A stretch of DNA of 64,000 nt. Source: Terebella lapidaria (lineage: Eukaryota > Annelida > Polychaeta > Terebellida > Terebellidae). Below the pieces are notes generated by a model. That model made no database searches and was not told the DNA's origin. It was given only the letters and a program-made list of their open reading frames with translations. The stretch's first letter is position 1. Each line of letters opens with the position of its first letter. The position numbers were made by a program, and so were the translations under genes. The stretch is from contig OX424560.1 of NCBI GenBank assembly GCA_949152475.1, positions 4,836,001 to 4,900,000 of the forward strand. Reading direction: 5' to 3'. This document shows positions 18,323 to 41,400 of this stretch, one piece after another.

Positions 18323-18613
18323 AGTGCTTACACAGATTAAGGTACCGCGCGGTACCTTAATCAAAGATGGCGGAAGGTAGGTTATGCTTCAATCATTTAC
18401 CGGCGATTTCTAGCATATACATGAGAAATGCGCGTATATTTTTGTGTTGTCTGAGAGGGAGTTACAACATATACACTGTGGATAAGTTACAAGAGATGTT
18501 ATACTGGCAGTCGCGAGTAATTTGAGGGAGAAGAAATCGGCTTGATTACGGTACCACACAGAGCTGACCGGCCTGTGATTACCGTACCACGCTTAAAAGA
18601 TTATGGTACCACA
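18323..18613 (+). repeat. Left terminal inverted repeat of the composite element
   Basis: Matches the reverse complement of 28529-28817. It contains the 28-bp palindrome (18335-18362) and three subterminal GATTA-type KpnI-like motifs. Confidence 0.85.
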
Positions 18614-18759: not shown

Positions 18760-19218
18760 TCAATTTTTTTGGAATCCGGTGTGTACTTTGGCCGATACAG
18801 TCTCCGTACTATGGTGCCGCTGGTATATTGCAGAATGGAGTGCTTCATCGAGACCAGACACTGTGTACTGTCGTACCTGTTGATCGGCTGCCTTTTCAAA
18901 AATATTAGATTTTAGATAGCAATGGGAGGTTCGATACCGGTCTATAGTTTGACAGTTCTTCAGTGTCAGACCCATGTTGTTGGGTTTGTTTTTCAAAATG
19001 GGTGTTATCAAGGCTTGTTTGATTGAAAACGGAATACACCACTGCAGAGCAAGGAGTTCAGCAAAAACTCCTGACATTTTTTTCACCAGCGGAATTGGGA
19101 TGGGGTCACTTCGCGATGATCTCAATGGCGAAGATTTGATGATGTTACACACTTCGTTTGATGTTAGCCTTTTGAAGTTCTCGAGTTTGTATGTGATCTG
19201 ATTGTCACTATTTAGCAC
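18760..19218 (-). pseudogene. CR1/L2-like reverse transcriptase fragment
   Basis: A 152-codon fragment of a non-LTR reverse transcriptase inside the TIR element. The order of recognisable RT pieces is KLENFKRLTSNEV, SSRSDPIPIPLVKK, IKQALITPILKNK and HHSTETVS. These correspond to the N-terminal RT motifs of jockey/CR1/L2-type LINEs (the KSS-DPIP and HSTETAL signatures), unlike the L1/Tx1-type LINE next door. Several motif positions are degraded (for example CQTIDRY where NYRPI is expected) and nothing downstream (the YADD box) is present, so this is a dead remnant. Confidence 0.7.
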
Positions 19219-19906
19219 TAGGTGATCATCAGAGAACGTTAATGTAATATTGGCAATTTTGTTGCTGAAGACGTTACAAAAACGATCACTGAACTTAGCC
19301 TCCGAATCTGTGTCAGGAAATTTGGAGACTTTTTTTCTTGTCTAGCACTGCTGCAGGGTGTTAATGAAAGATGATTTTGATATTAGAAAGGTTTATAACA
19401 GCGAGGTTTATAACTGGCATACAATAGGATGGTGCACTGTGCAGTGATGTATTTATGAAATGCACATAAATTGTTCTATTGGGGTATGTATGATTACTTG
19501 TTCTGTAAACTTTATCGTTTAAAAATGTAAAAATGGTCCTGTATTCAGTAATCATTTGAGTCATATGAATTGAATCTGACTATTAGCTGTACAAAACTGG
19601 CTCACAATAGAAACACAAATTTGAGAGATATTGCAGTAAAATTGCGTTGAATGTAGAATATTGTTCTTCGGAAACTTGTCATTTACAACTGTATGTAATG
19701 AATTTCATTCTTGCCGATTATCCTGGCTATTTATCCATTAACAATTTTAAGCAGCCCAATCTTCATTATTTTGCCCTTTTGTGCAAAACAATATAACTGG
19801 CACGGATGGTTAAGACTGCCTGTTGCCATAGCAACGAGTCCCACACAGGGGCCACGCTGGTAGCATTCCATCCCTGTCCCACATGTGTTTTATATCTTCG
19901 ATAAGG
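19219..19906. other. Interior of the composite element, no gene seen
   Basis: AT-rich with no coding signal. A segment at about 19735-19850 (AAGCAGCCCAATCTTCATTA, then CTGTTGCCATAGCAACGAG) recurs in diverged form and the same orientation at about 28227-28330, beyond the far end of the LINE. A weaker third copy lies near 28400. These direct repeats belong to the host element and bracket the LINE insertion. Confidence 0.5.
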
Positions 19907-20119
19907 TTGTTTTTTTTTTTTTTTTTTTTTTTTTTTGTATTGCTCTTTAGTAATAATACATCAAACTGACACATCACCGTTATACTTCCACTATCACGTT
20001 CGTTGTACACCTCATATTATTAATCCCTCGAAATCTATAATATACACATTCTGACATTCTACAGTTGAGTAGCAGCAACAACGGAAATCCTCGATCTTCT
20101 AATTCAGTGTAAGAGTCTA

Positions 20120-21469
20120 CTAAGGAACAAACTGTGCCCACTCTGTTTCAAATTTAACTGTGCTATAATTAAGATTTGCAATTTCCCTTTCAACCAATAA
20201 AGTGTTATCAAAATGTGCAATAAAATCCGTGATTGTTAAAAATATTCCTTTACATCTTTGTGCATATATAAACTGTTTTGTGAGCAGTAGAATTTTGTTA
20301 ATCGTTGTTTCCAGATTGGGAATACCGAAAATTATTTCTTTATTTGTAAAATTAATATGCATGTTTGTTTTTGCTGTCAACCAAGATTTGATTTCTGTCC
20401 AAAATAATTTCACAACCTCGCATTCCAAGAAAATATGTGGAATTGTTTCTATTTCTTCAGCGCACCAACAACAAATATCAGATTCTTTCAGCTTCCATTC
20501 ATATAGACGTTCGTTAGTAGTCAGTATGAAATGTTGTAATTTGAACTGAAAATCTAGAAGTTTTGTATACTTTGTTAATTGATACATATTAATTATTCCT
20601 TGAGTCCAGTCTGTGGTATTTAAGTTTCCCCCAAAGTAAGATTTCCATTTCTCAATACCCTTGATTACTGTCAAATCGATTTCTTTGGTTTTAATTTTTG
20701 TGTATACTGTCTTACATACTTTTTCTGTAGCTAACAATATGTTTATATTATCCAGATTAGTTTTATGAATAAAGAATTCTGCTCGATTGTCCTTTATTTG
20801 TTTTTTCCAGTTTTGGGGAATCGCTGATAAGATGCCGTAATATTTTGTAAAATCAATTTTAATGTCGTATTGAGCAGTAAAATTTTCAAAAGGTTTTGTC
20901 TCGCCTGAATTACTGAAAAAATTAATCAAGTTACTATGTTTAGTGTTTGAGAGTTCATTCATAAATATAGGCTTATTATCTATCCGGATATATGAGTTCC
21001 CTATTACTTGTTGGGATTTGAGATCCGATATGGTGCTGACTTCATTATAAGTGAATTCGAACCAGCAAGTCATTATATCCCTTGATAGGTAATTGTTACA
21101 TCTTTGCATACAGAACTGTATATCTTTTTTATTTAAATTACAATGCCATATTTGTTTTGTTTTTATTGGCAAGTTTCTATAAATGAAGTTAGACCAACTC
21201 ATCTCATTGTCTTTTATGATTCTTTTTACCCAAGCTATTTTTAAGGCCTTGTTTTTTGCAAAAATATCCGGTATATCCAAACCACCATTTTCTTTATTAT
21301 ATGTTAATACATTCCTTTTGACCTTGTCTTTTTTCCCATCCCACAAATAGCCGAAAATCAGTTGTTCTATTTGTTTCATTATGTGCAAAGGTGGCGTTGG
21401 TAAAATCGACAACAAATAGATAAATTGAGAGATGATGTAAGTATTGAGTATGACAATTTTTCCATACAA
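20120..21469 (-). CDS. LINE ORF2, C-terminal part, after a frameshift
   Basis: This open frame of 449 codons continues ORF2 after a one-base phase change near 21510. It starts in the thumb/post-RT region: the frame just upstream of its first Met reads IWSRRKLTLYGKIVILNTY, a hallmark of L1/Tx1 ORF2. It runs through LIFGYLWDGKK to a Cys/His cluster (CCWCAEE, then HIFLECEVVKLFW) of the C-terminal zinc-finger type found in these proteins. It ends with a stop at 20120, about 180 bp before the poly-A. With 21297-23918 it would form a nearly full-length ORF2; the break makes this copy non-functional unless it is a sequencing error. Confidence 0.82.
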   Translation of the reverse strand: MYGKIVILNTYIISQFIYLLSILPTPPLHIMKQIEQLIFGYLWDGKKDKVKRNVLTYNKENGGLDIPDIFAKNKALKIAWVKRIIKDNEMSWSNFIYRNLPIKTKQIWHCNLNKKDIQFCMQRCNNYLSRDIMTCWFEFTYNEVSTISDLKSQQVIGNSYIRIDNKPIFMNELSNTKHSNLINFFSNSGETKPFENFTAQYDIKIDFTKYYGILSAIPQNWKKQIKDNRAEFFIHKTNLDNINILLATEKVCKTVYTKIKTKEIDLTVIKGIEKWKSYFGGNLNTTDWTQGIINMYQLTKYTKLLDFQFKLQHFILTTNERLYEWKLKESDICCWCAEEIETIPHIFLECEVVKLFWTEIKSWLTAKTNMHINFTNKEIIFGIPNLETTINKILLLTKQFIYAQRCKGIFLTITDFIAHFDNTLLVEREIANLNYSTVKFETEWAQFVP

Positions 21470-23918
21470 TGTTAATTTTCTTCTGCTCCATATTGAGATA
21501 GTATTTTTTTATTCTTTCGAGGGCTTTGCTGTAATTTAGGTAAATTAAATCTTCGTATTTATGACAGATATATACACCGAGCATTTTCAGGGGTCCATTT
21601 GTCCACTTCAGTTTGGTATGAAAGGGTCTATAATTATATTTCACACTGCCTATGGGAAACACCTCAGTTTTGTCTAAATTTACTTTCAACCCAGAACATA
21701 TTTCAAAATTATGGAATGCCTCAATTACTTTATCCAAGCATTTCTCATCGTACATTATACTCAAAACAGTATCATCAGCGTATTGTGTGATTTTGAATTG
21801 TTGGTTTTTCAGCGTAATCCCCCGTATATTTTTATCCATTCTTATAGTGTTTGCCAACATTTCCGCGCATAATACAAAAAGGTATGGCGATAAAGGACAT
21901 CCTTGTCTCGCACCCCTTCCCAACCTGAAGCCATGTGACATTAAACCGTTATTTATTATTTTCCCTGTTATTTCCGTATAAAATAAACCTACCCACTTAC
22001 GAAAAATTGGACCAAAATTAAACCTCTTCAGAACTTCTTTCATATAATTCCATTCTAGGCAATCAAACGCTTTTTCAAAGTCAACAGATAGAAGCATGGC
22101 TGGGATATTTTCTTCATCGACATAGTCCATTATATTTTGTAACTTTAAAATGTTTTCCCCTATATATCTGTTTTTTATGAATCCGGTTTGGTCTGGGTTT
22201 ATTAATTCCGGAAGAACCGAGCACAAGCGTTTCGCGATTGCTTTTGTTGCTAATTTATAGTCCTGGTTTAGGAGTGAGATTGGGCGCCAGTTCTTTAATT
22301 TCAAAGTATCTTTATCTTTTTTAGGAATCAGAGTAATTATACCTTCACGTTGACTAGTGGACATCAAATTTTTTTTAAAGGCATAATTCAAGGCATTTAT
22401 AAGTGTGTTTTTTATATCATTCCAAAATATTTTATAAAATTCTGCAGGATAACCATCAGAACCGGGTGTTTTATTATTTTTACACGTTTTCAGGACACTT
22501 AGTAATTCTTTGTCTGTCAGTAATCCTTCACAAGACCTCTGTTGTTCATCAGTAAGTTTGGGGCTTTTGACATTATTCAAGTACTCGTTTATTTCATCAA
22601 TTTCTGTTTCTTTTGATGTATATAACTTTTCATAAAATTGCTTAGCTTCCTGTAGAATTTCGTCTTTGTTTGTGAGTTCTTCACCGTGTTCTGTTTGTAA
22701 TCTTTTGATAGTTTTATTATTGAATTTTCGCTTCTCTAAGCTTAGGAAAAATTTAGTTGGTTTCTCCCCATATTCAACCCAATTTGTTTTACTCCTCATA
22801 GCAATTCCATTGATATCTTTCTGAAGTAGTTCGTTAATTCCTGTTTTGGTTTGGTTTATCTCTAGTTCAGCGGCTGGATCGTTGTACGTGGAGTTTTGAT
22901 ATCGTTTTTCTAAAATTTCTAGGCGCCTAGTCAAAACTTCTAACATATTGATATTATGTTTCTTTTTTCTTGCACTATATTGAATTGTTTCTCCGCGTAT
23001 TAATATTTTCAACAACTCCCATAAAGTCGAATCGTCAAGGTGTTTATTTTCTCTGATAGTCTTGTCTATAAGCGATTTTATATATTTTACATACTCCAGA
23101 TCCGAGAGAAGGGAGCAATTTAGCTTCCAATATCCCCGTCCCCTATTCCCATCGATGGCTCCTATCTTCAAGGATATCATGGAATGATCAGTCAATATTG
23201 ATGGTTTGATGGATGATACTCTAATGAGATTGCTTAGACCAAATGATGTCAGGAAATAATCAATTCTAGAGAATATTCGGTGTAATTTATATTTGCAATA
23301 AAAAGTATATTGCTTCGAGTCTGGGTGTCGCTTTCGCCAAATATCAATCAGGTCGTTTTCCGTCATATATGCTTTCAGTATGCTACTCATATTTTTATTA
23401 GGATGCATTATGGCCCCGCCTTTTTTGTCTACAGTTTCGTTTAATACGCAATTGAAATCTCCGCCAATTATCCTATCGTCATTTGGGAATTCATCTAGTG
23501 TTTGTGTTAGATCGAGTATAAACCCAGGACTATCTTCATTTGGCGCATATACATTAGCTAAGGTTACACGCTGACTATTGAATTCTACGTCGAGTATTAT
23601 ATATCTTCCGTTGGGACATATCGCGGTTTTGTGCACTGCCGTTAGGGCCGAGTTTCGTACGATTATGCATACTCCACGGGAGTTTGATTCTCCGTGTGCG
23701 TAGTAACAGTTATAATCTAACCCTCCCCAATCCTCAGTCCAATTTGTTTCATCCTCAGTTGTGCTATGGGTTTCTTGTAACAAAATTACATCCGCTCTAT
23801 GCTGCAAGGTCAGCCATTGAAACAGTTTCAGTCTTTTACTTCTAGAAGTCCTCAGGCCTTTCACGTTAAGTGATACGATGTGTAGATTATCCATTGACGA
23901 TTGTGTATTTTTCATCAT
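21297..23918 (-). CDS. LINE ORF2, endonuclease and reverse transcriptase part
   Basis: Encodes an N-terminal apurinic-like endonuclease (LHIVSLNVKGLR, LLQETHSTTED, IGGDFNCVLN, RIDYFLT, SILTDHSMIS) and a reverse transcriptase (TPGSDGYPAEFYKIF, NWRPISLLNQDYKL, LLSVDFEKAFDCLEW, GARQGCPLSPYLFVL, QYADDTVLS). The catalytic residues of both domains are present: the Glu of QETH, GDFN, DH, the RT Asp of DFEKAF and YADD. About the last 70 codons (21510 down to 21297) are out-of-frame read-through after a one-base phase change in a seven-base homopolymer (21504-21510). This is an L1/Tx1-type ORF2. The protein nicks target DNA and primes reverse transcription from the nick. Confidence 0.9.
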   Translation of the reverse strand: MMKNTQSSMDNLHIVSLNVKGLRTSRSKRLKLFQWLTLQHRADVILLQETHSTTEDETNWTEDWGGLDYNCYYAHGESNSRGVCIIVRNSALTAVHKTAICPNGRYIILDVEFNSQRVTLANVYAPNEDSPGFILDLTQTLDEFPNDDRIIGGDFNCVLNETVDKKGGAIMHPNKNMSSILKAYMTENDLIDIWRKRHPDSKQYTFYCKYKLHRIFSRIDYFLTSFGLSNLIRVSSIKPSILTDHSMISLKIGAIDGNRGRGYWKLNCSLLSDLEYVKYIKSLIDKTIRENKHLDDSTLWELLKILIRGETIQYSARKKKHNINMLEVLTRRLEILEKRYQNSTYNDPAAELEINQTKTGINELLQKDINGIAMRSKTNWVEYGEKPTKFFLSLEKRKFNNKTIKRLQTEHGEELTNKDEILQEAKQFYEKLYTSKETEIDEINEYLNNVKSPKLTDEQQRSCEGLLTDKELLSVLKTCKNNKTPGSDGYPAEFYKIFWNDIKNTLINALNYAFKKNLMSTSQREGIITLIPKKDKDTLKLKNWRPISLLNQDYKLATKAIAKRLCSVLPELINPDQTGFIKNRYIGENILKLQNIMDYVDEENIPAMLLSVDFEKAFDCLEWNYMKEVLKRFNFGPIFRKWVGLFYTEITGKIINNGLMSHGFRLGRGARQGCPLSPYLFVLCAEMLANTIRMDKNIRGITLKNQQFKITQYADDTVLSIMYDEKCLDKVIEAFHNFEICSGLKVNLDKTEVFPIGSVKYNYRPFHTKLKWTNGPLKMLGVYICHKYEDLIYLNYSKALERIKKYYLNMEQKKINIVWKNCHTQYLHHLSIYLFVVDFTNATFAHNETNRTTDFRLFVGWEKRQGQKECINI

Positions 23919-24186
23919 TCAAGATTCGGGGATTTTTAACAGTGTCAGTGTCAAATGAAGTATATCCATGATTTATATATGTGTTTGATATTTTGAGTGC
24001 TGGTGGTGCTTTGAAGACCACAAAAGTCGTGGTATCGTGATAAAGTGCAACACGCTTGCTTTTCAGTATTATATTGTACATACACAGACTCATTTTATTA
24101 CATACAAACGTGTACAGTGCAGCAAGACGGCTCCAATGAATTTGTGCATCACTCAAGTTACCGTAACGATCGAATATAATCCACAC
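23887..24186 (-). CDS. Small ORF overlapping the ORF2 start, unknown
   Basis: A 99-codon open frame on the LINE strand whose stop (23887) overlaps the ORF2 start (23918) by 32 bp in another frame. I recognise no domain. The overlap could reflect translational coupling, as in some two-ORF LINEs, or it may be chance in 5'-leader sequence. Confidence 0.2.
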   Translation of the reverse strand: MWIIFDRYGNLSDAQIHWSRLAALYTFVCNKMSLCMYNIILKSKRVALYHDTTTFVVFKAPPALKISNTYINHGYTSFDTDTVKNPRILNDEKYTIVNG

Positions 24187-26531
24187 GTGTCTGAGTTATA
24201 CCAGAGTTATATATGAAACATGTTAAACATATTAAAGTCAGAAAGCATTAGAAGTCACACAATCAAAGTCAATAAACATTAGTTTGTCACACACATAAGT
24301 GTCACACACATGCTGTTGCGTATCAGTATACAGACAAGTCATAGTAGCCTAAAGCCTACAAATTTGTACTCACTATCGAGATTCTCTCATGCTCGACCAG
24401 ACTGAGTAGGTGTGTGCTCGTGGTATTATAGTGGTGTTAGTTCAGTGGTTATATGTCAAAAACATCAAGCGGGAACATAATACAACTACCATTTTGCCCT
24501 AAATCAATAACACCAATTTCAGGAAATCTGATGTAACAAGTACTCGAGTTTGAGTCTAACAAAAGTTCCAGCTATAGTACTATACGATTTTTCCATATAA
24601 GCTCTAACACTGTCAGTCTCATTCATTATCAGTACACTCAGGCGTGTCCGACAATACAATGTACTGTGTACCCTGGATAAGGAACTATCCGTATTTCGCT
24701 AATACATATTTACTTTATGATCCGATAAGCCACATTTTGCTATTATAGAGTTGAGAAACCATTTTGTATGTGAGAATAATAATTACATGCATACACATGA
24801 AACAAATAGCTAAACATGGCAGTATTCTGTGTCAAATATCAGTGGGCGATTGGACATATAAAAGTACCATGTCTTCATATGGTAGTCAAATACATACACC
24901 GATGAATGGTTATTCTTGCGTGTATACATGCATACATACACTGCCACATGTCACACACACTATAAGAGAACAGTTTACATTTTAACATTATCAACAATTT
25001 TCTTGATAAACTTGACATAACTATCACTAGCACTACAAGTGCTTAGATTTTGTACATGCTAGTCATCTACATAATATCTGTACCAAACAAAAATAGATGG
25101 ATTATGAGTACATGTATTGTGTAAATATAAATGAAATAATGGTCTATGCCATAACAATTTATCATGCGTCCTTGACTTGTTTAGTCTACATGTATATATG
25201 TCATTCTCGGATATTCATATACATGTACATATTATTTATATTCACATTATCAACAGTATAGCCTAGATAATGAGATGTACATGTTGCCTCATGCCCGGCA
25301 TCTTCAAATATATATTAGTACACCCATGCATACACCTATAGACACACTCACCCACACCCACACACCTCCACACACAACACACCTAGACATCAAAAGACAA
25401 CATTATTTACAATATTGACAGTACAGCCTACAGTATAGGCTAGACAATAGCATGACCATATGCATCTCATGTTATTGTTTGGCATCTTCAATATATACTT
25501 ATTATTGCAAGAGACACAGGATACACACACACAGACACCTACAATCACACAGACACACATACAACATTATTTACATTATTAACAGTACAGTCTATAGTAT
25601 AGGCTAAACAATGCCATGAACATGTGCATCTCATATTTGGCATCTTCAATATACTTATTATTGCAAGAGACAATTTACACACACACAGACACACACAGAA
25701 CATACACAGAACACATACAGACACACACACACACCCGTACAACATTATTTACAATATTAACAGTACAGTCTACATTATAGCTAAACAATGCCATGAACAT
25801 GTGCATCTCATATTTGGCATCTTCAATATATAGGCCTACATATCATTGCAAGATAGACAAAGTACACACACACAAACACACATTCATATCCAGACAACAT
25901 TACTTACATTACTGTAACAGTACAGTCCACAGACAGTATATGCTAGACAGTGGCATGGAGATATGTTTGGCATTTTCAATTACTCATACACATATTGCAA
26001 AAAAGACAGGACCCCCACACAGCCAACATTATTCACATTATCAACAGTACAGTCTACATATACCAGTACTAGTAGTACAGCCTATGAAATACAATGTACA
26101 TAATATGTGCCTCATACTTGGCATTCCCAAATATTTATAAGAGAATGAAATTCAGAGAGAAAAATAGTATACAGCACAGCCTAGACATGTATATATATGT
26201 GCCTGTTATCATGATAATTGTTAAGTATTTATATACCTATTAATTATTCATATTCACATTATCAGTGGCCTTGACATTTACATGTATGCCATATATCCGA
26301 CATCTTCAAATATTCATACATCCATTGATTTAGGAGAAAAATAACACATTATTCACATTCTCAGCAGTACACCTTGAGTATAGAGTACACTATGAAACTG
26401 TGAATTCAAATAGAAGGAGTGAAGTTGTACAAATTCAGAGATAACTGAATGTTATCTGTACATGACACTGAATGTTATTTGTATATGCATGGACTGACAG
26501 TAGCCATCTATGTTCACCTGTTTGCAGTTTC
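23919..26531 (-). other. 2.6 kb inter-ORF region of the LINE
   Basis: Apart from the small ORF at 23887-24186 and a tandem array at about 25235-26400 I see nothing coding. It is AT-rich with many CATACA/TGTATG words. L1-like elements usually have tens to hundreds of bases here, so this length is odd and suggests a later insertion or an expanded regulatory spacer. Confidence 0.5.
25235..26400. repeat. Tandem array (unit about 130-180 bp) with CA-rich spacers inside the LINE
   Basis: Seven or eight diverged copies of a unit that begins CATTATTTACA-TATT-ACAGTACAG and continues with GGCTA-ACAATGCCATGAACATG, CATATTTGGCATCTTCAATA and ATTGCAAGA. Most copies are followed by an ACACAC-rich tract of variable length. 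Copy starts are near 25243, 25401, 25564, 25742, 25898, 26026, 26245 and 26350. Confidence 0.75.
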
Positions 26532-27884
26532 TCAGGGGGCTGGATTTTGGGACTTTAGGATCGAATCTCTGAGACCCATGAGCAGTTCTCCAAGTTTGTT
26601 GTTTCCTTTCCATCGCGACGGATCGGCGAAACCATCACTGTAGAGGGCACTGCCAGTTCCCCAGAACAAGTCGTTTGGCGAGGCTTCTGCAATAGTGTTT
26701 TTGCCAGTGTTCAGCAAGAATTGCCGTAGATCAGCGTTTTGATGAAATTTCGCTTCAATTCCTCGCTTCATGACATCGGGAGCAGTCTGGTTCCACTTTC
26801 CACGGTCAGCAATCTTGATGCGATTGGAGATCATCTTTTGTGTTGCAGGGTCATCAGATGCTAGAATTTCCGCGGCTGCTGCCGAGTCATGGGCATACAG
26901 TGCCATCTGATGGGTGTAGAACTGTTCGCTGCAGTTGTATTGAATTCCGCTCACTGACAAGGTGCAGAGGTGATGGTTCGAAAGCGGAGAGTGTGTACTG
27001 TAGAAACAGGTCACGTTGTTCACTGTCGGGGTCGATATGAGGCATGGTTTCAGATCTGTTGGAAGTGATGCCAGAGTTTTTGTTGTATACGAAGTGTTGT
27101 TAATAATCAATTTGTCCTCTTTCAGGTAGCTGTGGTCCTTGTACAGGGGCATTGATTTTGCAGCGTTCATAATTGGCACCAGTAACCTTCTGCGTCTTTT
27201 CATTTCCTGAGGGAAGTTCTGTGTGATGAACACATTAGCAACGTCACCAGTCAGCTTGGGTCCGGCCGTGCTGTCTTGACGTCCTGGGCGGGCTTCCCAC
27301 ACCTTCTGTTTGTCGGAGCTTCTCATAAAACTCACTATCATGGAGCGTGGACGTGAAAGCTTTGAAACCCGCTTAGGACCAATTCTGTGTATCCTATCGA
27401 AATCAATCACATCTGGATCAATTTTCAAGTGTGTGCGTAAGAAATTATGGACACACTTTTCAGATTTTTCCTCCGTCTCCCAAGCGTCTTCTTTTAGTCC
27501 GTGTATAACCAGTTGTTTTCTACGGGAATACGATTCCAGATACAGAACTCTGTCGCTTATCTGCTCTTTCTGCTGTGACAATTGTGCCGTTTTCAGTTTC
27601 AAATCTCGATTTTCACGTTTAAGCTCCTGTAATTGACTCTCTTGTGCTCTCGACGTAATCATCAAGTCATTCAACCTATTTTTAAGATCTTCTTTCACAT
27701 CTGTTATCTGGACTTCCAAACCTTTAAACACCGTTTTGGCCCAGCTGGGTGTATCCGGTGGGAAGATAATTTCATGTTTGGCCATTTTATTGGAAATATT
27801 TTCCAGCGGTGAGACTTGTGAGCGGTTTGGTTTACCTGTACGAGCGGCAAGTGGTGTTGTCTGTATGTCCGCTACCTCTCCCAT
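26532..27884 (-). CDS. LINE ORF1 protein fused to a C-terminal NADAR (YbiA-like) domain, 450 aa
   Basis: A single uninterrupted frame. Residues about 55-118 form a heptad-rich coiled coil. About 118-200 is the RRM-like L1 ORF1 region (LESYSRRKQLVIHGLKED, FDRIHRIGP, RPRSMIVSF). About 210-270 is the C-terminal RNA-binding region (FITQNFPQEMKRRRRLL, LYKDHSYLKEDKLIINN). Residues about 292-443 then read as a complete NADAR domain: CFYSTHSPLSNHH, CSEQFYTHQMALYA, ATQKMISNRI, KWNQTAPDVM, KFHQNADLRQFLLNTG, IAEASPNDLFWGTG and GNNKLGELLMGLRD. NADAR proteins such as YbiA and the bacterial DarT partners act on ADP-ribose or ribose-linked N-glycosides. Inferred role: ORF1p binds LINE RNA while the NADAR domain removes ADP-ribose from nucleic acid or protein. 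All the conserved NADAR blocks are present in order. Confidence 0.85.
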   Translation of the reverse strand: MGEVADIQTTPLAARTGKPNRSQVSPLENISNKMAKHEIIFPPDTPSWAKTVFKGLEVQITDVKEDLKNRLNDLMITSRAQESQLQELKRENRDLKLKTAQLSQQKEQISDRVLYLESYSRRKQLVIHGLKEDAWETEEKSEKCVHNFLRTHLKIDPDVIDFDRIHRIGPKRVSKLSRPRSMIVSFMRSSDKQKVWEARPGRQDSTAGPKLTGDVANVFITQNFPQEMKRRRRLLVPIMNAAKSMPLYKDHSYLKEDKLIINNTSYTTKTLASLPTDLKPCLISTPTVNNVTCFYSTHSPLSNHHLCTLSVSGIQYNCSEQFYTHQMALYAHDSAAAAEILASDDPATQKMISNRIKIADRGKWNQTAPDVMKRGIEAKFHQNADLRQFLLNTGKNTIAEASPNDLFWGTGSALYSDGFADPSRWKGNNKLGELLMGLRDSILKSQNPAP

Positions 27885-28200
27885 GAGGGACTAGCGCCGT
27901 GTTTACTATGCTTCGCTTGGGCGACTTCACCAGTGTTCACTGACCTGTTGTATGAATGCCGAGTCACCAACGGGTGAGCCAATATGGCGTCGCCTGTATT
28001 GTATTCATGGGTTGAAATATCTTGTGTGATATGACGATATTCCTTGTTTTGTGACATTAAATCCCAATTTGTTTTGTGTCCATAGTATCTCAACTCCTTC
28101 ACATTGCACTTATTTGACACGGACACGCATATTTTTCCACATTTTCACGGTAAATTGAGCGAGCGAAAATTTATGCCATTGCAACTTTCTTGACGCAAAG
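27885..28200 (-). other. 5' region of the LINE upstream of ORF1
   Basis: Presumed 5' UTR and internal promoter. An 84-codon open frame (28126-27872) overlaps the ORF1 start but has no recognisable domain. The exact 5' end is unclear; host-element sequence resumes by about 28225. Confidence 0.4.
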
Positions 28201-28528
28201 TAGGCTGGTTGTTGATCTGTCCTTAAACATTAACACTTTAAAGCAGCCCGATCTTCAATATTTTTGCCATTTTATAGGAAATAGACCTGTTGCCTTGGAA
28301 ACGAGCCCTACCTTGAGGGCGGTGGTATCAGCATGTCTATTTCATATATTATGTTCATCTATGACAAAGTTGGTAACCACCATTAAACACCTTTAAAAAT
28401 TAAACACTTTCAAACAGAATGAACCTCGTGAATATTGCCATTTTCGAGTGACTGTGTGTCAAAAAAGTAACACTGGAATAGCACCTCTTCAACAGAAAAA
28501 AAACATTAAATGGATAAATTGGGTAGTT

Positions 28529-28817
28529 GTGGTACCATAATCCACGATTCAAGGCTGTTCGTGGTACCTTAATCAACCTCACGCGGTACCATAATCAAGC
28601 CGATTTCTTCTCCCTCAAATTACTCGCGACTGCCAGTATAACATCTCTTGTAACTTATCCACAGTGTATATGATGCGACTCCCTCTCAGAAACCAAACAA
28701 ATATACTCGCATTTCTAATGTATATGCTAGAAATCGCCGATGAAAGGTCGAAGCATAACCTACCTCCCGCCATCTTTGATTAAGGTACCGCGCGGTACCT
28801 TAATCTGTGTAAGCACT
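28529..28817 (-). repeat. Right terminal inverted repeat of the composite element
   Basis: Inverted partner of 18323-18613, with the same outer palindrome (28778-28805), YY1-like motif and long shared core around 28600-28680. It carries three further GATTA-GGTACC motifs. Confidence 0.85.
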
Positions 28818-35448: not shown

Positions 35449-38400
35449 TCAGTCGTCTTTGACCAGTCTATACTCCAGGAGAGGGAAGAAATCTTTGTCG
35501 TTGTCTGTGTACCTGGCGTAGACCTCTGCCCTGAGCCGTGTGTCTTTCCCGGTGTGGGCTACTCCCTCCCACGTCTTCTTGTTGTCTCCTTTCTTCAAGT
35601 AAAACCACTGCTGACCCACGATGACGGCCACCGCTTCAGCCTTGGAGACCTCAACCTTGAACTTGACGTTCTTGTTGAGCTTCAGTTGCCCTGTAGTCGG
35701 TTCATGCAGGCGGCACTTGTGCCAGTATTGCAGGGTCTTGGGGAACGGTCGCATTCCGCACGATCCAGACTTCTTGTTGCATTGAATCAGGTATCGACAG
35801 GCACAATCGAGACTCTGAGATTTGCTCTCGCTGTAGCCTGCAAACACACTGAAGATGTAGATGCCACGTTCTGGAAATCTCAGCAGGTAGGAGACGAAGC
35901 AGTGGTCCTTGAACCTCTGAAAAGCTAGCCGATCGAACTCAACGTCCTTGTAGGATTTCATGTCGATATGCGTGATGATGTCACCATTATGTCGACAAAA
36001 AGCCAACTTTTGAGAAACCCGAACAGGGCATCTGAACTTCAGGTTGAGGATCAGTTTGTCTTCATTGCTGACAAGATAATGTTCATCAAGCTTCTCTGCG
36101 CAAATACCAAGATCCTCTCCAACTGGTGTCACTCCGAAGCCGTCTGGAAGTTTTGGGAATTTGCAGAAGGGGGTTACTTCGACCCTAGTGCAGACCACAC
36201 GGAATGAGGCAACCGTGTTGTAAGTATCGCCTCTGTCTTTGTCGCAGGCAAAGATCGTCAGGAAGAAGATTCCCTTGCTGGGGAGCGTGAGGCTGAATAT
36301 CACCTGCTGACACTCTCTGTGGTGGATACAGTAACCATCCAACTCCTCGCCTTCAATCTCCAGACGAGTACTGAAGCTGAGTCTCCCTTTGGATGTGTTA
36401 GTCAGGACGACTTCGGCTTTCCCAGTATCGGTTTCGATTATAGAAGAAGCTGACCTCGTAAACTTCAACCCGTAGTGGAAGAAGTGCGACTTGACCACCG
36501 GGAGGTTGATGAAGTGCTCCAGTGACACACTGCGATCCAACAACTGCCACTCTGGCTCATCAGGGTAGTGCATGTAGATCATATCATCTGGATCGGTCAG
36601 AAAGTAGAACTCGTCCAGTTCATAGCAGAAAGCCCGAGGATCGCTAGCAGCCCTGGCGTTGTTAACATGTCGGGCTCCCCAGTGACAGTCAATGAACCGC
36701 CAGCAGCCCTCAAGGTGGATCACTGCCCATGAGTTCCTGAAATGGCTGTCTCCAAACGGCATTCCAGGGCGGTACCCGGCACTCTTCGACAGTCCACGAA
36801 CGATCTTCACCGTCAAACCCACATAGCTGTAATACATTCACCACAAAAACACAAATACATGTAAATGCAAATGTATTTCATGGTTATATCGGTAAGATTT
36901 ATCAATAATATCGGTAAGATTTATCAATTATATCGGTATGCAAGCCAGGATAGAACGTGTTTCATGGCTACATGTGTTTTCGACCTGCACAGGCGCTTGA
37001 ACAGTTGATGGTAGCTCTCCAGTCCATATTTGATGCCTTTCAAGAAATAGTATGGGCTGTCCTCAGTGAGACCGTCACTAAACATGATCTGGTTCAAGTT
37101 CTTGAATGTCAGCCACCGGAATATCGCTCTTGGAAAAATGAACATGGAAAGTAGTTGATTGACATACATGTTGAACTATTATGATATTGTATTAATAGCC
37201 AATAAAAGCAGATGAAACACAGTGCACCAATACATTTGTATGAAACAATAATAGATAATACATGCTATATCGTAGACAAGTACTCTAACCTGGCTTTTTC
37301 TAGAGGACTCTTGCAGGACCTCGTCAGCTCATACGTGAGTTCTGTGAAACTGCCCGGCTCATACTGAGCAACCTAGAAACAGAACAAGGATTCAAACGTG
37401 GCTTGAACTGTGTTCATTCCAGTCACGGGAATGTTACACAATGAAAAGCTTGTCTACCCATCGTACTAAACTAGGCAGATTCTTTACATTCATGAGCTTG
37501 TCAATATGACAGTTGTAGTTCCTTCTCGAATCACAGTTTATCTGACTCTAATGAACAAAAAAGTATCACTGCCAAGATAGGCTTATGAAGATGTCACTAT
37601 ATCAAGTGACATCCGTCCACTCACCTGAATAGCATTGAAGTCCACGTCATCAAAGATGTGTGGTCCGGGGTACAGGCCTCGCTTCTTCTTCCGTGGCGGC
37701 TTGGGGGAGGGTACCTTGACGGGCACCTGCAAAGATTGCTGAGTATATATGAGTGCAGCGACGACGTCAAGACTTCCAGACACAAAAAGGCTGATGTTTG
37801 TGCTACTGCATCATTTTATTACTCTTCATGACAGTGAAGCGAACATTGTTATGGTCATTTTGACAGTATGGCTATTTATTATGACATTAGAATGTCTGAA
37901 TGTCTAGATATATATGACATTAGAATGTCTGAATTGGAACTGTATACAGCGAGGTACGGTAACAGACTTTGACGTCGATAAGCTGCAGCATCTCCCGGGT
38001 TTGTCGCTCGATCAGCTCGTCTATGCGGAGTCGCTCCTTGCCAGACAAGTTACTCATCAGGTGCTTCATCTTCTCGTCTCTCATCCTGCGAAACTTCTGC
38101 TCAATCTGTCGCTTCTCGACCTCGATATCAGCTGCAGTCAAGCCTGGGAATGGAGATGGAATAGGGTCATGTCTCTGTGAATGGCACTGCTCAAATAGCT
38201 TATTGAATTCTATTGATTATATACCAATGCTCAAATTTATGTAGAGCTTCGTTACAAACAGTTCGGTATTTCATGTAGAAAAACTACATAATGAAAATCT
38301 GTGTATTAGTATGACTTATTCGTTAAATTATGCGAGAATATTACTAGAATACGAGTAGATTCGACAGCTAGACTATTATAATTAGAACTATATCCAACTT

Positions 38401-41400
38401 GTCCTATAAATGAAAGTATAGACTGTTATAGTCATACCACTATTGACCCGGCCAAGAAGTTCTGTGACGGCTCCCTCCGTCTGTCGCCGGATTCCATCCT
38501 CCACTCTCCGGATCTGGTTCTCCCGGGCCATCTCCAAGTCCCGGATCATTGCGTCATGCTCCTGTCGCTGGCGGAGTTCCAGCTGATTCTGCTCCAGGAA
38601 TCGCTTCTCTTTCAGGTACTCCGGCGGGCGACGCTGACGGGATACAGTTGACATGGCCAGTGCGGCAGCGTGGCGCGGGTTTGTGGTCATCTCATTGGAC
38701 TTGCTGGTCTTCTTCGACTAGAGATTTAATGATTACGAGTTCAAAAGTGTTATTGGTGCATTCAAAAATCACTAACTTGCTGGAAGCTATGAACAGTAAA
38801 TTTTGAATATTTTTCGAAGAAAAATGGCCTGAATATCGAGATGTTATTGAAATCTAATTACAATGTATTTAAACTTAAATTCACCTCAAAGATTCCTCAT
38901 TTTTACTTTCAAATGTTAAAGATTTGGAGTATATATGGTGAATCACCAGAAATTAAAAGTCAAATGGTGTGGTATAATTCGAACTTACTCATTGAACAAC
39001 ATTCTTTTTACTATACAGAGTTTCATAAGTTAGGTATTGTGTATATTGCAGACATTGTTGATGATGATATGAATCCAATACCATTTGAGCACTGGGTGGA
39101 GCGGGGACTATCACAGAAATATTGGTTGAAATGGCATGGGTTAATATCATGTTGCTTTGAAGCTCAGAGAAAAGGCTTAATTCTGTTAGAAAAGAAACAA
39201 GACACGTATGTATATGATACCAATCTATTTTTGAATAACAAACCTTTACAATCAGTAAATAACAGGTCTGTTGGATATTTTATTTCAAAATTTCACCATC
39301 ACGAGGTTTATGAACCAAACATTAAAAAATTCATTGAGCCGGATGACGAAATAGATTGGAAAATGGTATATGCGATTATATACAAATACTTGATAGACAT
39401 AAAATTACGAGACTTTCAATATAAATTTTTACAGGATATCTTATTGAATAAATCCAGGTTGTTTCTGTGGAAAATTGATGACACTAACATATGTGAATTT
39501 TGCTATTCACATGTGGAGAATTTGGAACACTTATTTTGGTCGTGTGAATGCAACCAATCTTTTATAGCTCATCTAACAAGATTTTGTTATGTGAACCACA
39601 ATATAGTATTATCTAAAAACAATTTCTTTCTAGGATTGTCAAATGACAGTCTATACCATATTTTGTGTTTATCTCGGAAATATATATACAATACAAGATA
39701 TCGGGGAAATATACCTCGTTGGGGCATTTTCAAACGCTATGTACTCAACATAAAAACCACAGATTATGAGGTTGCTAAATCGAATAATACAATGGGGGTA
39801 TGGACGATTAAATGGGAGAATATTGATATCACTTGATTCGCTTGAGTATGATCGGAAAAGTATTGTATGGTATAGTTAAGGGACATTTACATAAGTGTAG
39901 TGAGATTATTGTATAAGTGCATTGAGGTATTCTGTATGCTACTAATGTACAAGAAACAGTAAACTGAAATAAACAATTACATTTGCTATCATTCTATATT
40001 AAACTGAGAAGACAGAAGATACAATCCAATTTATCAGAAATTCATAGAAATTCATCAATTAGGAATATATTTCCAAAACAGTATCTCCAAGCGCGAATCA
40101 TGATGACAGTAACCAACCTTTAGACGCTCAATCTGGAACGTTTCCTCCTGAACGACGATCTCTGAAGTTTCAGCTGCTCTCTCCACAGAGGCTGGTTCCT
40201 TGTTGTGTTCGTCAGGTCTCAGAACATTCAACCTTTCGTAGATCGTCTCTGGAGGATAGTGTTGCTCCTTCACCGACCTCCTTGAGACGGGGGCGTTCTC
40301 CTCGTGCTCATACTGAAACTGATCTTGGAAATCCCCGCCATTCTCGCCACAGGGAGAGCCATTTGATTGGTGGACGTATTGGAATGCTTCTTCCATGGTT
40401 GAGTTCTCACACATGAAGCTCTGGTCATAGTCGGGGTTATCTTCAACAACTTCTGACGCTGGAGCCTTTTCGTGCCACGTTGGATCCGTTCTTTCACTTG
40501 CCCACACTTGTGTTTCGCCAACCGGCTCGGAGATTCTCAGAAGGCGTTTGACTTTGTTCGGTGACTTCTGTGGCTGAGTGTGCTCGTACTCTTCGCGGCC
40601 ATTGCTCTCCACTTGGGGTGCAGTCCTGCCACGGTCCAAGATCTCTGTGAGAGCTGTTGCCACGTGTTTGACTCGATCATTGCGCAACTCCCCCTGCCTC
40701 AGTCGACGGATCAGGTCTCCCTTTTCGTATTCCTAACAGAGAGGGAAACAATTCACGAGGAGCATGTAACACTGTTCACATATGGAAACTTCTTACACAC
40801 TGATTTATGCGAAAATTTGTGCAACAAAATGTGCAAAGTGTGATAACGTGAGAGCATTGATTCAGATTGACTGAAACCTTTTTTTCAAAAACGTTCAAAG
40901 GAAATAATATCAAGCAATATTTTACACAAAAGTGCTCGAATTTTCTGACCTGGAAATTTCCAAAAAAATTATGTGAACCGACTTGCAAAAAGCAACAAAA
41001 ATAAAACGCTGAAAACCATCGATATTGTGATGTAAAGTAGTGACTCACAATCTCGTCAGGTTCCATGTCGTAGCCGGGAGGACGTCGCTGTTTGTTACGT
41101 TCATGTAATGCTCGAGCGTGCTCGAACTCCCTGGCCTTGGGGTCATACTGCCAACCAGAGACGTCGTTCAGGCGTATCTACAGTATCAAAACCATACCAA
41201 TAATATATTTTCAAATATTGAAATGGAGAAATTGATTGAAAAGCATATGCTCATTTGTAACCCTCAACACCAGGTAGGTCTCATATGAAATGAACACTTG
41301 AAGTTAATTGGAAGTCACAAAAAGGGTCAGAATCACCAGTTACTAGTAGTGTCCTGTCCTGTTGTTAGTTCTTACCTGGGCATTAAAGCTGTCCCTTTTG

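What the first reader, a model, noticed from the sequence alone, without database searches (positions are those of the whole stretch)
26532..27884. LINE ORF1 protein carrying a complete NADAR (YbiA-like) ADP-ribose-processing domain
Seen: one unbroken frame holds an L1/Tx1-type ORF1 (coiled coil, RRM-like region, C-terminal RNA-binding region) and then about 150 residues with all conserved NADAR blocks in order (LSN, SEQFY, KW, VM, KFHQN, LL-TG, E, WGTG, GNNKLG-LLM-LR). Established: NADAR/YbiA-like enzymes cleave N-glycosidic bonds to ADP-ribose or ribose, and some bacterial NADARs reverse DNA ADP-ribosylation by DarT. Inference: the LINE RNP may erase ADP-ribose laid down on nucleic acid or ORF proteins by host PARPs or ARTs at the nick during target-primed reverse transcription, a possible counter-defence. 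I know of no description of a retrotransposon ORF1p-NADAR fusion. It could also explain stray YbiA-like genes annotated in invertebrate genomes.
Basis: partly seen in the sequence, partly recalled or inferred. Interest (0 to 1): 0.93.

Follow-up and report, generated by a model that had tools for sequence, protein, structure and literature searches.

The report
LINE coat protein carrying a NADAR domain
This is a jumping-gene (LINE) RNA-binding protein fused to an enzyme-like domain of a family known to strip ADP-ribose from nucleic acids; the fusion is real, recurs widely in this animal's genome and looks kept by selection, but such fusions were briefly noted before and this copy lacks one residue thought essential for the reaction.

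Summary
Window 26532-27884 (minus strand) is one intact 450-codon frame: an L1-type ORF1p followed by a NADAR domain (Pfam E=1.1e-36). A 99.4% identical second insertion fixes the element's ends at 28180 and 19910, so the fusion sits in a full-length LINE with an L1-type ORF2. It is not a one-off: 150 NADAR loci and 136 ORF1-body loci were scored in the same genome; of 20 long-frame loci picked by ORF1 body, 19 carry NADAR in frame. The module precedes two distinct ORF2 types, and NADAR evolves at dN/dS about 0.08 in the closest measurable comparison. Two corrections. A 2025 paper already mentions NADAR in ORF1 of oyster Tx1 LINEs (PMC12477816). And the lysine required for guanine de-ADP-ribosylation in a bacterial NADAR is methionine here (M327, both copies); 27 of 32 non-redundant NADARs sampled from this genome keep it. 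Most sampled families could encode an ADP-ribose eraser travelling with the LINE RNA; the window's family probably has weakened or altered activity. Enzymatic activity and counter-defence remain untested.

The parts
19910..28180 (-). complete LINE insertion including poly(A) tail, 8271 bp
   Evidence: ends set by alignment with a second insertion L031 (99.4% over 8277 columns, unrelated flanks)
27885..28180 (-). 5' UTR, 296 nt
26532..27884 (-). ORF1, 450 aa: L1-type ORF1p plus C-terminal NADAR
27027..27587 (-). end of coiled coil plus RRM/CTD-like body (about residues 100-286); limits approximate, set by eye
   Evidence: profile match to LINE-1 ORF1p 2ykp/2yko/2ldy
26559..27002 (-). NADAR domain, residues 295-442
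   Evidence: Pfam PF08719 E=1.1e-36
26925..26927 (-). Glu320 (E43 of P. nicotianae NADAR)
   Evidence: numbering from PMC11543638 section 12
26904..26906 (-). Met327, at the position of the essential Lys (K50 P. nicotianae, K95 E. coli C7)
   Evidence: ATG in both copies
26685..26687 (-). Glu400 (E125 of P. nicotianae NADAR, catalytic)
23919..26531 (-). 2.6 kb ORF1-ORF2 spacer with a minisatellite (164-177 bp units) at about 25230-26060; part of the mobile unit
21297..23918 (-). ORF2 first part: AP endonuclease and reverse transcriptase (873 aa, ends in frameshifted tail)
   Evidence: Pfam Exo_endo_phos 5e-12, RVT_1 2e-34
20120..21469 (-). ORF2 second part in another frame (449 aa from TTG). 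The L031 copy has one open 1236-aa ORF2 with zf-RVT
19910..19936 (-). poly(A) tail, 27 A (T on + strand)

Best explanation
Shown: this is a full-length L1-type LINE whose ORF1 protein carries a NADAR domain at its C-terminus, one of many such families in the same animal genome. The ORF1-NADAR module recurs as a unit, shows purifying selection where it could be measured, and is found upstream of two unlike ORF2 types. Inferred: ORF1p coats the LINE RNA, so the NADAR domain travels with the RNP. In families that keep the full active site it hydrolyses an N-glycosidic ADP-ribose adduct, most likely on guanine of LINE RNA or single-stranded cDNA, keeping the template copyable. Inferred for the window's family: Lys to Met at the pyrophosphate-coordinating position has weakened this activity or shifted it to another ribosyl substrate or to binding, while the fold and the ribose-facing glutamates are kept.
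For: NADAR and L1 ORF1p homology. Element ends and second insertion. Recurrence: 94 scored matches to the ORF1 query, some partial; 150 scored NADAR loci, 89 of them in open frames of 380 aa or more; 136 scored ORF1-body loci; 19 of 20 long-frame body picks with in-frame NADAR. E43, W89, E125 and D130 equivalents invariant in 32 of 32 non-redundant own NADARs. dN/dS of NADAR 0.074-0.079 (bootstrap 95% 0.036-0.139) in three pairs that share L032, like the ORF1 body at 0.082-0.094; four other NADAR pairs 0.10-0.18. In the group with altered Lys, NADAR non-synonymous divergence (0.27-0.40 per site) is in the range of the ORF1 body (0.28-0.41), lower than the body in 15 of 19 divergent pairs, equal in 1, higher in 3. 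Characterised NADARs remove ADP-ribose from guanine in DNA and RNA (PMC11543638, PMC11125620, PMC11833690: passages or sections). K95 is essential in E. coli C7 NADAR (PMC11543638 section 12).
Against: No activity was measured for any LINE-borne NADAR. The window's family lacks the essential Lys, and its R79 equivalent is Asn. Across the own-genome NADARs examined the R93 equivalent is Ala or Ser in 63 of 64, unlike many other NADARs. YbiA acts on riboflavin intermediates, so ADP-ribose need not be the substrate. The host's guanine-modifying ART, if any, was not found: that search did not complete. Only 3 of 1225 locus pairs had usable dS in both regions, all sharing L032, so selection on the window's own subclade is indicated, not measured. 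Three relatives in other data sets have the ORF1 body without a recognised NADAR. No structure prediction was possible.
Confidence: 0.45

Rival explanations
1. Counter-defence: the domain erases ADP-ribose placed by host PARPs or ARTs on the target site or on ORF proteins during target-primed reverse transcription.
For: PARP1 is found in nuclear L1 ORF2p complexes of human cells (PMC5821459, passages). RNA viruses carry NADAR or Macro domains in polyproteins, proposed to reverse host ADP-ribosylation (PMC9503650, passages). Clams have an enzyme that ADP-ribosylates guanine N2 in DNA (PMC11209040, passages).
Against: In tests NADARs did not remove phosphate-end RNA or DNA ADP-ribosylation (PMC11833690 passages) or thymidine ADP-ribose (PMC11125620 section 5). 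In human cells the PCNA/PARP1-associated ORF2p is reported as not appreciably associated with ORF1p (PMC5821459 passage citing Mita et al.), which speaks against an ORF1-borne eraser at the nick. The essential Lys is missing in this family. No host writer was identified here, and the host is not shown to be a mollusc.
Confidence: 0.2
2. The domain is mainly a ligand- or RNA-binding or architectural part of ORF1p, not an enzyme in use; the window's family is a pseudo-enzyme.
For: Met, Leu or Gln replaces the Lys in the window's subclade (window, L003, L008, L011; also P0008) while the domain stays about as conserved as the ORF1 body.
Against: The E43, E125 and D130 equivalents are invariant in all 32 non-redundant own NADARs, K-less ones included, which a pure scaffold would hardly need (inference); 27 of 32 keep Lys.
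Confidence: 0.2
3. Metabolite repair: the domain clears reactive ribosyl N-glycosides as YbiA does in riboflavin biosynthesis, with no link to ADP-ribose.
For: Best NCBIfam model is the riboflavin-intermediate N-glycosidase domain, E=2.1e-36.
Against: No reason is known to me for a retrotransposon to carry this; fusion to an RNA-binding protein favours a nucleic-acid substrate (inference).
Confidence: 0.1
4. One-off read-through or assembly artefact.
For: None found.
Against: Second insertion on another contig, intact ORF1 frame, 99.4% identity; recurrence in the genome; same fusion in 6 full-length and further partial proteins of other data sets.
Confidence: 0.005

Closest known systems
Tx1 LINEs of Crassostrea gigas with NADAR in ORF1 (PMC12477816, passages)
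   Same: LINE ORF1 protein with a YbiA-family NADAR domain; ORF2 here is L1-type
   Different: Those sequences are not held here, so no direct comparison. The passages I read give no frames, active site, selection or copy counts, and name only Tx1; here the module also precedes a non-L1 ORF2 type and one subclade lacks the key Lys
Ectocarpus Gypsy elements with NADAR at the N-terminus of Pol (PMC12477816, passages)
   Same: Retrotransposon-borne NADAR
   Different: LTR element, domain in Pol, not ORF1p
L1-type (type II) ORF1p, human LINE-1 and some CR1/L2 elements (PMC4120745, outline and passages)
   Same: Coiled coil, RRM and CTD body; type II ORF1 is known in the L1, CR1 and L2 lineages, with reticulate ORF1 evolution
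   Different: NADAR added C-terminally; the words NADAR, YbiA and DUF1768 do not occur in the main text of that survey of 448 elements (its supplements were not seen)
E. coli YbiA and Phytophthora nicotianae NADAR (2b3w, 8bau)
   Same: Domain homology; E43, W89, E125, D130, W133 equivalents of the P. nicotianae protein
   Different: K50 equivalent is Met, R79 equivalent is Asn, R93 equivalent is Ala in the window; fused to ORF1p
Nematode SNA-3 (three NADAR domains, SL trans-splicing; PMC9303266, passages)
   Same: Animal NADAR protein working with RNA
   Different: Host splicing factor, not transposon-borne

Membership tests
NADAR family (PF08719) | Profile score above curated cut-off over the whole domain | tested here: met
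   127 bits against 35.1, profile 3-162 of 163
NADAR family (PF08719) | Ribose-facing glutamates E43 and E125 plus W89, D130, W133 | tested here: met
   E320, E400, W364, D405, W408
NADAR family (PF08719) | Pyrophosphate-coordinating Lys (K50/K95) needed for guanine-ADP-ribose hydrolysis | tested here: not met
   Met327 in both copies; Lys in 27 of 32 non-redundant own NADARs and 113 of 123 NADARs with a letter there
NADAR family (PF08719) | Hydrolase activity on ADP-ribosyl-guanine | not testable with these tools
   Needs purified protein
NADAR family (PF08719) | YbiA-like fold | not tested
   Structure prediction not accepted
L1-type (type II) ORF1p | Coiled coil, RRM and CTD homologous to LINE-1 ORF1p | tested here: met
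   Profile A1 to 2ykp/2yko about 9e-11, 2ldy 1.7e-8; the single sequence alone has no Transposase_22 hit
L1-type (type II) ORF1p | Trimer formation and RNA binding | not testable with these tools
   Needs protein
L1/Tx1 group LINE | AP endonuclease and RT of L1 type in ORF2 | tested here: met
   L031 ORF2 to human L1 ORF2p 8uw3 E=5.9e-115 over residues 9-897
L1/Tx1 group LINE | Poly(A) tail and target-site duplication | tested here: inconclusive
   27-nt poly(A) present; no duplication found
L1/Tx1 group LINE | Placement in Tx1 rather than L1 proper by RT tree | not tested
   No reference set of RT clades available; the Tx1 label rests on PMC12477816 and recall
DarTG1-type NADAR antitoxin | Partner DarT1 ADP-ribosyltransferase encoded beside it | tested here: not met
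   Only ORF1 and ORF2 frames of 150 aa or more on the sense strand of the element

The most novel reading that the evidence does not exclude
A NADAR-bearing L1-type ORF1 has spread across unlike LINE lineages (L1/Tx1-type and a second, CR1/L2-like ORF2 type) as a selected module, giving LINE RNPs their own eraser of base-linked ADP-ribose on nucleic acid, i.e. a transposon-encoded answer to host guanine ADP-ribosylation; in the window's subclade the eraser has turned into a reader or taken a new substrate through loss of the key Lys.
Probability: 0.25. Interest if true: 0.85.

Novelty: new variant of a known kind. Interest (0 to 1): 0.6.

Why it matters
Nucleic-acid ADP-ribosylation in animals has few known erasers or biological roles. 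A retrotransposon lineage that keeps a NADAR on its RNA-binding protein through many families gives a natural, testable system: families with the intact site and a sister subclade without the key Lys can be compared in one host. It also warns that NADAR or YbiA-like gene models in invertebrate genomes may be LINE ORF1s, and it adds a domain to the list of modules exchanged between LINE ORF1s.

Tried and rejected
Chance or read-through: rejected. A host NADAR gene beside an unrelated LINE: rejected because both insertions share everything from 28180 to 19910. NADAR-less relatives of this ORF1: searched with the body alone (136 scored of 458 candidates). I fetched 20 of the matches that by eye were not in the lists, choosing those with open frames of 372 aa or more, which favours a C-terminal extension; 19 have in-frame NADAR (2 of them partial) and the 20th keeps only its first residues. 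A further 12 with shorter frames could not be fetched, so NADAR-less relatives in this genome are not excluded. The fish protein P0007 and P0009, P0010 have the body without a recognised NADAR. Tree of 102 NADARs: 52 of 99 inner branches open, so a single origin of LINE NADARs is neither shown nor excluded. Viral contigs: one pattern match, no relative. Target-site duplication: none found. A compensating basic residue in K-less families: none evident by eye. Dead ends: Rfam and tRNA scans empty.

Full report
1. Observation. The frame at 26532-27884 is on the minus strand and encodes 450 aa without a stop. Residues 295-442 match Pfam NADAR at E=1.1e-36, NCBIfam riboflavin-intermediate N-glycosidase at 2.1e-36 and solved NADARs 2b3w and 8bau. 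The rest of the protein is an L1-type ORF1p: a profile of the window protein with six homologous fusions matches human LINE-1 ORF1p (2ykp/2yko, about 9e-11) and mouse ORF1p (2ldy, 1.7e-8). The window protein alone gave no Transposase_22 hit, so this assignment rests on the profile.

2. The mobile unit. The host genome is an unnamed assembly of 761.6 Mb; the window lies at C6:4836001-4900000. A second copy on contig C8 (L031) aligns from window 28180 to 19910 at 99.4% identity over 8277 columns, with unrelated sequence on both sides. The unit holds a 296-nt 5' UTR, ORF1-NADAR, a 2.6 kb spacer with a minisatellite, ORF2 and a poly(A) tail. ORF2 is frameshifted in the window and open for 1236 aa in L031; L031 ORF2 matches human L1 ORF2p at 5.9e-115 over residues 9-897. 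The four ORF1 differences between the copies are all non-synonymous: too few to judge, and compatible with drift after insertion. No target-site duplication was found.

3. Not a one-off. The full ORF1 found 94 scored matches in the genome, some of them partial, the Pfam NADAR model 150 scored loci out of 973 first-look candidates; both lists are capped lower bounds and favour intact loci. By my count of the table, 144 of the 150 have no stop in the domain; 89 of 150 lie in open frames of at least 380 aa and 14 in frames under 200 aa. I examined 64 NADAR records, 63 distinct loci: 30 from the ORF1 search (L001-L030; L001 is the window itself), L031 and L032 (L031 is the same copy as L002), 20 chosen with long frames (L033-L052) and 12 chosen with frames of 216 aa or less (L053-L064). 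Of the 20, 19 have the ORF1 body in the same reading frame; the exception, L050, has Gypsy-like Pol before NADAR. Of the 12, 4 have some ORF1 body in the same frame, 5 only in another frame and 3 none in the stretch fetched, as decayed or truncated copies, or host genes, would show. Conversely, the ORF1 body alone gave 136 scored loci out of 458 candidates. I fetched 20 that by eye were not in the earlier lists and had open frames of 372 aa or more; 19 have NADAR in frame (two partial) and one only its first residues. That choice favours frames with a C-terminal extension, and 12 shorter ones could not be fetched. In metagenome and public protein data, 6 full-length fusions and one partial one were found, plus three relatives with the body and no recognised NADAR (P0007, P0009, P0010). 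Among the 120 listed proteins of a domain-only search, 17 more have the ORF1 body directly before NADAR at E below 1e-5. From both directions, then, NADAR is a regular part of this ORF1 lineage in this genome.

4. Two ORF2 types. I looked downstream of NADAR at 11 loci (L031, L032, L065-L073). Three (L031, L069, L070) have an ORF2 like the window's; pieces are 31-49% identical to each other, 62% in one stretch of 102 aa. Five (L032, L065, L066, L067, L072) have another type, 28-86% identical among themselves by piece, which resembles the first type only around the RT at 22-34%; L066 matches R2 and L1 RT about equally, at 1.5e-21 and 1e-20, and only in the RT region. L068 resembles the second type more distantly; L071 (3.6 kb examined) and L073 show no ORF2-like frame. 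L032 and L065 are collinear, ORF1 81.5% and ORF2 77.6% identical as DNA with an unaligned spacer of 1.3 and 1.9 kb between, which ties ORF1-NADAR to this ORF2. From recalled motifs (DISKAFDxVWHxGL, GVPQGSVLGPLLF, N-terminal NPGP) I take the second type for CR1/L2-like; no reference tree was available. L1-type ORF1s in CR1 and L2 lineages and exchange of whole ORF1s are known (PMC4120745, outline and passages); NADAR is not named in that paper's main text.

5. Active site. Through 8bau (chain numbers two higher than the paper's, my reading of the alignment) the residues shown to matter (PMC11543638 section 12) map as E43-E320, K50-M327, R79-N354, W89-W364, R93-A368, E125-E400, D130-D405, W133-W408. 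In 32 own NADARs no more than 93% identical to one another (window plus loci up to L064), E43, W89, E125 and D130 are invariant, W133 is W in 27 and F in 5, and K50 is K in 27, Q in 2, M, L and R in one each. In all 64 records K50 is K 40, L 9, Q 9, M 3, R 3 (the 3 M are two genomic copies, L001 and L002/L031). Among the 127 P proteins plus the window, 113 of 123 with a letter there have K. All 19 NADARs have K. The nearest partial relative, P0008, 43% identical over the shared part, also has Met, so the change belongs to the family and is not decay of one copy. On a tree built without that column the window groups with L008, L003, L011 and L015 with moderate support (89/82), four of the five lacking K; P0008, half-length, is not placed there. 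K95 of E. coli C7 NADAR is essential for guanine de-ADP-ribosylation, Arg being tolerated in vitro (PMC11543638); hence this family is predicted to be weak or changed. No replacement basic residue stood out.

6. Selection. Of 1225 pairs among 50 loci only 3 had dS between 0.05 and 1.5 in both regions. For these three, which share L032 and are not independent, dN/dS is 0.074-0.079 in NADAR and 0.082-0.094 in the body, bootstrap 95% limits 0.036-0.147 over both. Four further NADAR pairs give 0.10-0.18, two of them with near-saturated dS and two sharing a row. For the group with altered Lys (window, L003, L008, L011, L013, L018, and L023 with Arg), NADAR synonymous sites are saturated (pS 0.75-0.91) and NADAR pN is 0.27-0.40 against 0.28-0.41 in the body: lower than the body in 15 of 19 divergent pairs, equal in 1, higher in 3. 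That indicates constraint but does not measure it. Close pairs have too few changes to say.

7. Mechanism. Shown: anatomy, recurrence, constraint where measurable, residue states. Established elsewhere: NADARs from bacteria, phage and an oomycete remove ADP-ribose from guanine in DNA (PMC11543638, PMC11125620); those tested on RNA remove it from guanosine but not from phosphate ends (PMC11833690); NADAR residues matter for a nematode RNA-processing protein (PMC9303266); clams make a guanine-N2 DNA ADP-ribosyltransferase (PMC11209040). Inferred: a LINE RNP carrying NADAR could keep its RNA or cDNA free of such adducts. I put the eraser reading at 0.45 for the lineage, with changed or weak activity in the window's family. 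Counter-defence at the nick is one version of it and is not supported beyond plausibility; that human PARP1-associated ORF2p is reported as largely without ORF1p (PMC5821459 passage) speaks against it.

8. Prior work. PMC12477816 (passages) reports NADAR in Ectocarpus Gypsy elements and notes divergent hits to ORF1 proteins of several Tx1 LINE families of Crassostrea gigas that appear to be NADAR domains. Searches for NADAR with retrotransposon (20 of 104 papers listed), NADAR domain (15 of 15), YbiA with LINE (12 of 12), Tx1/ORF1/non-LTR/NADAR (14 of 14), DUF1768/YbiA/retrotranspos/ORF1 (15 of 1,210) and NADAR/transposable element/mollus (5 of 5) (listings, a few papers opened) showed no other paper that I could see to name the fusion; two of the listings are cut and the library lacks most subscription journals and bioRxiv. 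What I did not find there: the second ORF2 type, the genome-wide recurrence, the selection figures and the K-less subclade.

9. Limits. No structure prediction, no host name, no host writer enzyme, no RT reference tree; fetched loci were chosen by me and are not random.

Noticed in passing
L050 27-2453 (-), G000:C8:827500-830100: An 808-aa frame joins Gypsy-like Pol (aspartic protease and RT motifs, by eye) to a LINE-type NADAR; perhaps a truncated LINE inserted in frame, a possible route to NADAR-Gypsy fusions like those of Ectocarpus.
   Followed up: partly
L070 6543-7217 (-), G000:C4:9426900-9434200: A 225-aa GDSL hydrolase frame (PF13472, E=2.1e-15) lies between ORF1-NADAR and an L1-type ORF2; esterases are known from ORF1 of CR1 and L2 elements (PMC4120745 passages).
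   Followed up: partly
L066, L032, L067 (start of ORF2): ORF2 of the second type begins with 2A-like motifs (VELNPGP, IELHPGP, VHTNPGP; likeness to 2A recalled).
   Followed up: no
window 18323-18555 and 28585-28817: 93% identical inverted repeats of 233 bp flank the LINE, with a 28-bp perfect palindrome inside; the LINE may sit inside a non-autonomous element with terminal inverted repeats.
   Followed up: partly
window 28228-28273 and 19736-19780: Two diverged direct copies (87% over 46 bp) lie 48 and 130 nt outside the two ends of the LINE; too far out and too diverged to be a duplication made by this insertion.
   Followed up: no
window 25230-26060: Minisatellite of 164-177 bp units within the mobile unit, spanned by the alignment of both insertions.
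   Followed up: no
window 38841-39836 (+) and 18760-19218 (-): Frames that look by eye like fragments of other LINE ORF2s.
   Followed up: no
G000:C6:12340190-12377586: Five equal- or near-equal-scoring NADAR loci within 37 kb, the last four 4-5 kb apart: local amplification.
   Followed up: no
window 35449-36837 (-): Host gene with KY-type Ig-like domains (PF23265, E=6.9e-38).
   Followed up: no
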